A stretch of DNA of 64,000 bases. Source: Cylindrotheca closterium. Taxonomy: Eukaryota > Bacillariophyta > Bacillariophyceae > Bacillariales > Bacillariaceae. Positions 63,509 through 63,628 of the stretch are shown piece after piece (position 1 is the first letter of the stretch; each line of letters opens with the position of its first letter). A program made the translations under genes and the position numbers. Under the pieces are notes generated by a model. It was not told the origin of the DNA and did not search any database. It saw only the letters and a list, made by a program, of their open reading frames with translations. The DNA lies in contig CAKOGP040002091.1 in assembly GCA_933822405.4 (NCBI GenBank), positions 243,889 through 307,888 of the forward strand, read 5' to 3'.

Positions 63509-63516
63509 TATATATA
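63509..63516 (+). promoter_or_regulatory. TATA-like element upstream of the tRNA
   Basis: TATATATA lies 30 bp before the 3' tRNA half at 63546, the place expected for a TATA box of a Pol III gene with an upstream element. Confidence 0.5.
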
Positions 63517-63545
63517 GCCATTTTCTAGTACAAGCATTCGTCGAT

Positions 63546-63622
63546 ATCAGAAGATTCCGGGTTCGAATCCCGGGCGGGCTTCTACTGGCCCGTTGGCCCA
63601 ACGGTAAGGCGTCTGACTACGA
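63546..63622 (+). tRNA. Circularly permuted tRNA-Arg(ACG) candidate
   Basis: The 3' half (63546-63581: nt 38-73) comes first: ATCAGA, variable loop AGATT, T arm CCGGG-TTCGAAT-CCCGG, then GCGGGCT and discriminator T. Five nt later the 5' half (63587-63622: nt 1-37) begins: GGCCCGT, TG, D arm GCC...GGC, then TCTGA and CTACGA with anticodon ACG (63619-63621). The anticodon stem pairs 63612-63616 with 63547-63551, and the acceptor pairs 63587-63593 with 63574-63580 (two G-U pairs). A box (TGGCCCAACGG, from 63594) and B box (GGTTCGAATCC, 63560-63570) are both intact. The halves meet at the usual 37/38 intron position. Confidence 0.75.
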
Positions 63623-63624
63623 AC

Positions 63625-63628
63625 TTTT
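63625..63628 (+). terminator. Pol III terminator (T4)
   Basis: Four Ts begin two bases after the end of the 5' half, in the right place to end a Pol III transcript covering both halves. Confidence 0.5.

What the first reader, a model, noticed from the sequence alone, without database searches (positions are those of the whole stretch)
63509..63628. Circularly permuted tRNA-Arg(ACG) gene in a diatom-like genome
The 3' half of one tRNA-Arg lies 5 nt upstream of its 5' half. Seen directly: both halves fold into a full cloverleaf with anticodon ACG, both A and B boxes are intact, and the break falls exactly between nt 37 and 38, where eukaryotic tRNA introns sit. A TATA-like element precedes and TTTT follows. 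Complementary bits in leader and trailer (TTCG at 63537-63540 or TCG at 63541-63543 against CGAA/CGA at 63620-63623) could extend the anticodon stem for the splicing endonuclease. Established: permuted tRNAs that mature through a circular intermediate are known from the red alga Cyanidioschyzon and some green algae. I do not know of a described diatom case, but could not search.
Basis: partly seen in the sequence, partly recalled or inferred. Interest (0 to 1): 0.95.

Follow-up and report, generated by a model that had tools for sequence, protein, structure and literature searches.

The report
Diatom tRNA genes written back-to-front
In the diatom Cylindrotheca closterium, a transfer-RNA gene for arginine has its second half placed before its first half, and so do gene copies for cysteine and one isoleucine transfer RNA; searches found no normally ordered nuclear copy of these three, so the cell probably has to close each transcript into a circle and re-cut it to make them.

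Summary
Confirmed and extended. The window holds a circularly permuted tRNA-Arg(ACG) gene at 63546-63622, broken at 37/38, with a 5-nt linker. A permuted-tRNA model trained without Arg(ACG), Cys or Ile(UAU) finds it at 62.6 bits, E 2e-19 in 115 kb. The assembly is that of Cylindrotheca closterium, a pennate diatom. Five more permuted genes turned up: two Arg(ACG), two Cys(GCA), one Ile(UAU). DNA searches with the three rejoined sequences returned only permuted copies; a diverged colinear copy is not excluded. Rejoined, all six read as tRNAs. Matches to splicing-endonuclease subunits and an RNA ligase are present. The likely route, inferred, is cutting at 37/38, closure into a circle, then removal of the linker by RNase P and tRNase Z; no RNA data were available. 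The kind is known from red and green algae, nucleomorphs and an archaeon; ten paper searches showed no diatom or stramenopile case, and other diatoms could not be searched.

The parts
63509..63516 (+). TATA-like element (TATATATA), starting 37 nt upstream of the 3' half; likely Pol III upstream promoter element
63537..63545 (+). leader next to the 3' half; 63537-63541 (TTCGT) can pair with ACGAA at 63619-63623
   Evidence: pairing at chance level
63546..63581 (+). 3' half of tRNA-Arg(ACG), nt 38-73 (last base = discriminator U73)
63560..63570 (+). B box (GGTTCGAATCC)
63582..63586 (+). 5-nt linker (CTACT) joining the tRNA 3' end to the tRNA 5' end; no T run inside
63587..63622 (+). 5' half of tRNA-Arg(ACG), nt 1-37
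63594..63604 (+). A box (TGGCCCAACGG)
63619..63621 (+). anticodon ACG (A34 expected to become inosine, recalled)
63625..63628 (+). T run, likely Pol III terminator, 2 nt after the 5' half

Best explanation
This is a circularly permuted tRNA-Arg(ACG) gene in the nuclear assembly of the diatom Cylindrotheca closterium, and its transcript is predicted to be cut at position 37/38 by the tRNA-splicing endonuclease and closed into a circle, from which RNase P and tRNase Z would then remove the 5-nt linker to give a normal tRNA. Shown: the order, the 37/38 junction, the cloverleaf on rejoining, five further permuted loci, no colinear nuclear copy found for the three isoacceptors, and genes matching the needed kinds of enzyme. 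Inferred: transcription by Pol III from the upstream AT-rich element, endonuclease cleavage, circularisation, and use in translation. The product would read CGU and CGC codons, which the window's ORFs use.
For: Model R1 hits (59-67 bits) at all six loci. Three loci for Arg, two for Cys and one for Ile(UAU), all fitting a 37/38 break; DNA searches with the rejoined sequences return nothing colinear. Bodies are kept while linkers, leaders and trailers differ: the three Arg copies have one body difference and three different linkers. A T run of 4 or more lies within 30 nt downstream in 6 of 6, against 30 of 35 colinear genes and 14% of random window places; a TATA-like word within 60 nt upstream in 4 of 6, against 18 of 35 and 12%. 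Codons in 26 window ORFs: CGT 70, CGC 88, TGT 55, TGC 85, ATA 64 of 8725. Two tRNA_int_endo matches, both over the cut-off, one weak Sen54-type match (23.8 bits, 25 with neighbours, cut-off 24) and one RNA ligase. Junction pairing summed over the six genes is slightly better than shuffles (combined z -2.05, genes not independent). The circular route was shown by RT-PCR in red and green algae (PMC3978253, section 6).
Against: No RNA data. Junction pairing beats leader shuffles at p<0.05 only for Ile (p 0.023); Arg-60k is 0.074 and the other four, the window copy included, lie between 0.295 and 0.440, so a bulge-helix-bulge motif is not shown for this gene. Folding energy of the window copy is unremarkable (z -1.57). 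The absence of colinear copies rests on BLAST-level DNA searches and limited patterns: the Rfam tRNA search scored only 63 of 1908 candidates, and the GCA pattern was checked only in part. No RtcB and no Sen15 were found; the ligase ORF is T4 Rnl1-like with no kinase or phosphodiesterase domain, so the sealing step is open. The C5 endonuclease candidate is just over the Pfam cut-off as a protein (27.5 against 27) and matches no PDB sequence. The Ile gene has a U-U mismatch in its acceptor stem.
Confidence: 0.9

Rival explanations
1. The locus is an assembly join or a chance pairing of two broken tRNA copies, without function.
For: Only one copy lies in the window; ARAGORN and Rfam (gathering) do not call it.
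Against: Six permuted loci on four contigs (C529, C550, C329, C551) for three isoacceptors, kept bodies, different linkers, T runs after 6 of 6, and no colinear source gene found that could have been broken.
Confidence: 0.02
2. It is a tRNA-mimic non-coding RNA of the bacterial YrlA (Y RNA-like) sort, not a tRNA gene.
For: The Rfam YrlA model, whose members carry a permuted tRNA-like fold (recalled), matches the window copy at 27.4 bits and the other five at 21.8-44.6 bits.
Against: All matches are far below the YrlA gathering score of 69. Rejoined halves give Arg, Cys and Ile tRNAs, with U73 on Cys and A73 on Ile. No other nuclear copies of these isoacceptors were found.
Confidence: 0.03
3. 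The halves are joined in trans between two transcripts, or work as a tRNA nicked at 37/38, without a circular intermediate.
For: Junction pairing is above shuffles at p<0.05 in only one of six genes, and neither RtcB nor a three-domain Trl1-like ligase was found.
Against: The 5-36 nt linkers hold no T run that would end transcription between the halves, so one transcript is expected; its anticodon stem brings its own ends together; circles were found for permuted tRNAs in red and green algae (PMC3978253, section 6).
Confidence: 0.05

Closest known systems
Type II (37/38) permuted tRNA genes of prasinophyte green algae (Ostreococcus, Micromonas; Maruyama 2010, as tabulated in PMC3978253)
   Same: Break at 37/38, short linker (11-64 nt in the table), nuclear; Cys(GCA) is permuted in three of the four prasinophytes listed and in this diatom.
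   Different: Different lineage (a stramenopile with a red-derived plastid, the plastid origin recalled); Arg(ACG) and Ile(TAT) are not in that table; Arg linkers here are 5 nt; Arg and Cys are each present in more than one permuted copy.
[quoted passage not shown]
   Same: 3' half before 5' half, upstream TATA-like element, T run downstream; no Sen15 found in either.
   Different: C. merolae genes break at several positions and 4 of 11 also have an intron; the six found here all fit a 37/38 break and have none.
Permuted tRNA genes of Bigelowiella and Amorphochlora nucleomorphs (PMC3978253; PMC4494063 passages)
   Same: 37/38 break and 5-nt linkers in B. natans, as in the Arg genes here.
   Different: Those are tRNA-Ser genes in a relict green-algal nucleus; these lie on contigs of 163-1021 kb of a diatom assembly, one of which (C529) also carries a silicon-transporter gene.
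Permuted tRNA genes of Auxenochlorella (PMC12633428, passages)
   Same: Found because ordinary tRNA scanning gave an incomplete set.
   Different: Green alga.

Membership tests
Circularly permuted tRNA gene | 3' half upstream of 5' half, together one cloverleaf | tested here: met
Circularly permuted tRNA gene | Junction at a splice position (type II, 37/38) | tested here: met
   37/38 is the one junction that fits all six; in some copies a neighbouring position would give the same product because bases repeat there
Circularly permuted tRNA gene | Short intervening sequence (1-74 nt in the review) without promoter or terminator | tested here: met
   5, 5, 5 (counting the shared T as nt 73), 9, 9 and 36 nt; no TTTT inside; review table
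Circularly permuted tRNA gene | Upstream TATA-like element and downstream T run | tested here: met
   Window gene has both; over the six, T run 6 of 6, TATA-like 4 of 6
Circularly permuted tRNA gene | Bulge-helix-bulge at the junction | tested here: inconclusive
   Only Ile beats shuffles at p<0.05; window copy p 0.38; combined z -2.05
Circularly permuted tRNA gene | Circular RNA intermediate and mature, charged tRNA | not testable with these tools
   No RNA data
YrlA RNA (RF02553) | Rfam gathering score of 69 bits | tested here: not met
   21.8-44.6 bits at the six permuted loci
Split (trans-spliced) tRNA gene | Halves at separate loci | tested here: not met
   Halves 5-36 nt apart at every locus found

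The most novel reading that the evidence does not exclude
A diatom encodes whole essential nuclear isoacceptors (its only tRNA-Cys, its only CGU/CGC-reading tRNA-Arg, and tRNA-Ile(UAU)) exclusively as permuted genes, so all its cytosolic protein synthesis runs through circular tRNA precursors; this carries permuted tRNA genes into the stramenopiles and opens the question whether they came with an algal endosymbiont or arose anew, with leaders and trailers so short that the splicing endonuclease must work without an outer intron helix.
Probability: 0.75. Interest if true: 0.82.

Novelty: new member of a known kind. Interest (0 to 1): 0.75.

Why it matters
In what I read, permuted tRNA genes are listed from a red alga, green algae, chlorarachniophyte nucleomorphs and one archaeon. 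Six in a diatom would add a major eukaryote group. If tRNA-Cys truly has no colinear nuclear gene, the circular route would be essential there and could be tested in a cultured alga. It also means that ordinary tRNA scanning may under-count diatom tRNAs (ARAGORN calls none of the six in place). Cys(GCA) is permuted in prasinophytes too, which makes the single-origin question testable.

Tried and rejected
Viral-contig scans with four exact half-sequences to look for relatives: three found nothing; one 18-mer hit (L116) shows no tRNA and no R1 match, so chance. The YrlA reading was rejected on score. The YrlA hit at C496 (21 bits, E 1.3) overlaps a colinear tRNA-Arg(TCG) and scores 27.6 with R1, so rejected. 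Apart from the six loci, R1 hits in the tRNA-bearing loci searched score 9.6-37.4 bits; the highest spans parts of two neighbouring tRNAs on C95. Colinear ACG pattern: 46 matches, ARAGORN run on all 46 (30, 16); the only tRNA-Arg(ACG) is on C70, which I take as plastid from its tRNA set; a Gln on C95 (taken as mitochondrial) and one 92-nt 'Ala' call also appeared. Colinear GCA pattern: 111 matches, about 100 listed, no loci cut; judged by eye, two fetched and negative; the others were not folded, and both patterns ask for one form of B box. The 35 colinear genes leave out one tRNA-Thr on C36 that I had labelled organellar without proof, and are only those near the best Rfam hits. Gly(TCC) was rotated but not put into R1.

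Full report
What was checked. The finding is at 63509-63628. Read directly, the stretch runs: TATATATA (63509-63516), leader, tRNA nt 38-73 (63546-63581), CTACT (63582-63586), tRNA nt 1-37 (63587-63622), AC, TTTT (63625-63628). ARAGORN and Rfam at gathering score call no tRNA anywhere in the window. Folded alone, the strand forms the permuted arms, with a modest energy z-score of -1.57, so folding energy is not what makes the case.

Is it more than chance? I rotated colinear tRNAs of the same genome (nuclear and organellar) at 37/38, aligned 20 of them and built a covariance model, R1, that contains no Arg(ACG), Cys or Ile(UAU). Over nine sources (115 kb) R1 finds the window gene at 62.6 bits, E 2.2e-19; nothing else in the 64-kb window reaches E 10. 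Rejoined, the halves are a tRNA-Arg(ACG) in ARAGORN, with a G-U first pair and a 3-bp D stem.

Which organism. The window is C529:243889-307888 of a 47.6-Mb assembly of 572 contigs. Silicon transporters (PF03842) match 12 times, once on C529 itself at 226277-227653. An RNA ligase on C113 (495546 bases) is 100% identical to a protein named from Cylindrotheca closterium whose longest contig is 495546 bases. That species is a diatom of the family Bacillariaceae, Stramenopiles.

More copies. The rejoined Arg sequence, used as a DNA query against the whole assembly, matched three places, each as two halves in permuted order: C529 (the window), C550:59349-59428 and C550:60590-60667. The Rfam YrlA model, searched over the assembly, scored 46 of 817 candidates and pointed to three more loci, which R1 scores at 67.4, 67.4 and 62.6 bits. 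Read out these are tRNA-Cys(GCA) twice, as an inverted pair on C329, and tRNA-Ile(UAU) on C551, the latter with a U-U mismatch in the acceptor stem. DNA queries with rejoined Cys and Ile again returned only these permuted places. Linkers are 5 nt in the three Arg genes (counting the shared T as nt 73), 9 in the Cys genes and 36 in the Ile gene. The YrlA search missed Arg-60k, so six is a lower bound.

No colinear copy? A pattern for colinear ACG tRNAs gave 46 places; ARAGORN on all 46 found one tRNA-Arg(ACG), on C70, a contig with plastid-like tRNAs. A like pattern for GCA gave 111 places, checked only in part; none was run for Ile(UAU). The Rfam tRNA search scored 63 of 1908 candidates, all over the cut-off; ARAGORN on the loci around them shows no nuclear Arg(ACG), Cys(GCA) or Ile(UAU). 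So a diverged colinear gene is not excluded, but none was found. The contigs that I take as mitochondrial (C95) and plastid (C70) have their own Cys tRNA.

How it would be expressed. A T run of at least four follows the 5' half within 30 nt in 6 of 6 permuted genes (30 of 35 colinear genes read; 14% of random window places); a TATA-like word lies within 60 nt upstream in 4 of 6 (18 of 35; 12%). The linkers hold no T run. Both internal boxes are intact but in reverse order; the review argues that upstream elements take over in such genes (PMC3978253 section 5).

How it would mature. [quoted passage not shown] This genome has two catalytic-domain matches for the splicing endonuclease (the C5 protein 27.5 bits against a cut-off of 27, with no PDB match), one weak Sen54-type match (protein), no Sen15 match, no RtcB and one T4 Rnl1-type RNA ligase. 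These searches read exon by exon, so misses are weak evidence. The junction motif is weak: anticodon arm, trailer and leader, tested against 1000 leader shuffles each, give p 0.377 (window), 0.357 and 0.074 for Arg, 0.440 and 0.295 for Cys, 0.023 for Ile; combined z -2.05. If Pol III starts some 25-30 nt after the TATA element (recalled), leader and trailer are both only a few bases long, so recognition would rest on the tRNA body; this is inference.

Need. In 26 window ORFs of 8725 codons (mechanical ORFs of at least 240 codons), CGT and CGC occur 158 times and TGT and TGC 140 times. Cysteine has no other nuclear tRNA in what I found. Ile(UAU) is less strictly needed, since an inosine-bearing tRNA-Ile may read AUA (recalled).

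Literature. I ran ten paper searches. Those joining permuted tRNA with diatom, stramenopile, Phaeodactylum or Thalassiosira gave few papers; in the passages I opened none reports a diatom case, nor do those. Two listed papers, PMC4378963 (birds) and PMC5664110 (organelle gene transfer), were seen as listings only. I read sections 4 (part 1), 5, 6, 8 and 10 (part 1) of PMC3978253. Subscription papers are mostly not held, so this is not proof of absence.

Verdict. A permuted tRNA gene of the known 37/38 type, one of at least six in a diatom, apparently the sole source of three nuclear isoacceptors. Order, structure and the lack of found colinear copies are computed; transcription, circularisation and use are inferred.

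Noticed in passing
window 41233-61564: Tandem array of eight ORFs with CRAL-TRIO domains (8 of the 10 window ORFs scanned).
   Followed up: no
G000 C329:683366-683687 (L054 1516-1837): Two permuted tRNA-Cys(GCA) genes face each other as an inverted pair about 160 nt apart, with the same last eight leader bases.
   Followed up: partly
G000 C550:59349-60667 (L015): Two permuted tRNA-Arg(ACG) genes on one strand about 1.2 kb apart; the one at 60.6 kb differs from the other two copies by one D-loop base.
   Followed up: partly
G000 C113:103140-103694 (L099): T4 Rnl1-type RNA ligase; of its listed relatives that bear an organism name, after Cylindrotheca itself one is a Nitzschia-like transcript (name cut) and the rest are bacterial. 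It could be the sealing enzyme or unrelated.
   Followed up: partly
G000 C4 and C361: Clusters of silicon transporter matches, three on C4 and six on C361.
   Followed up: no
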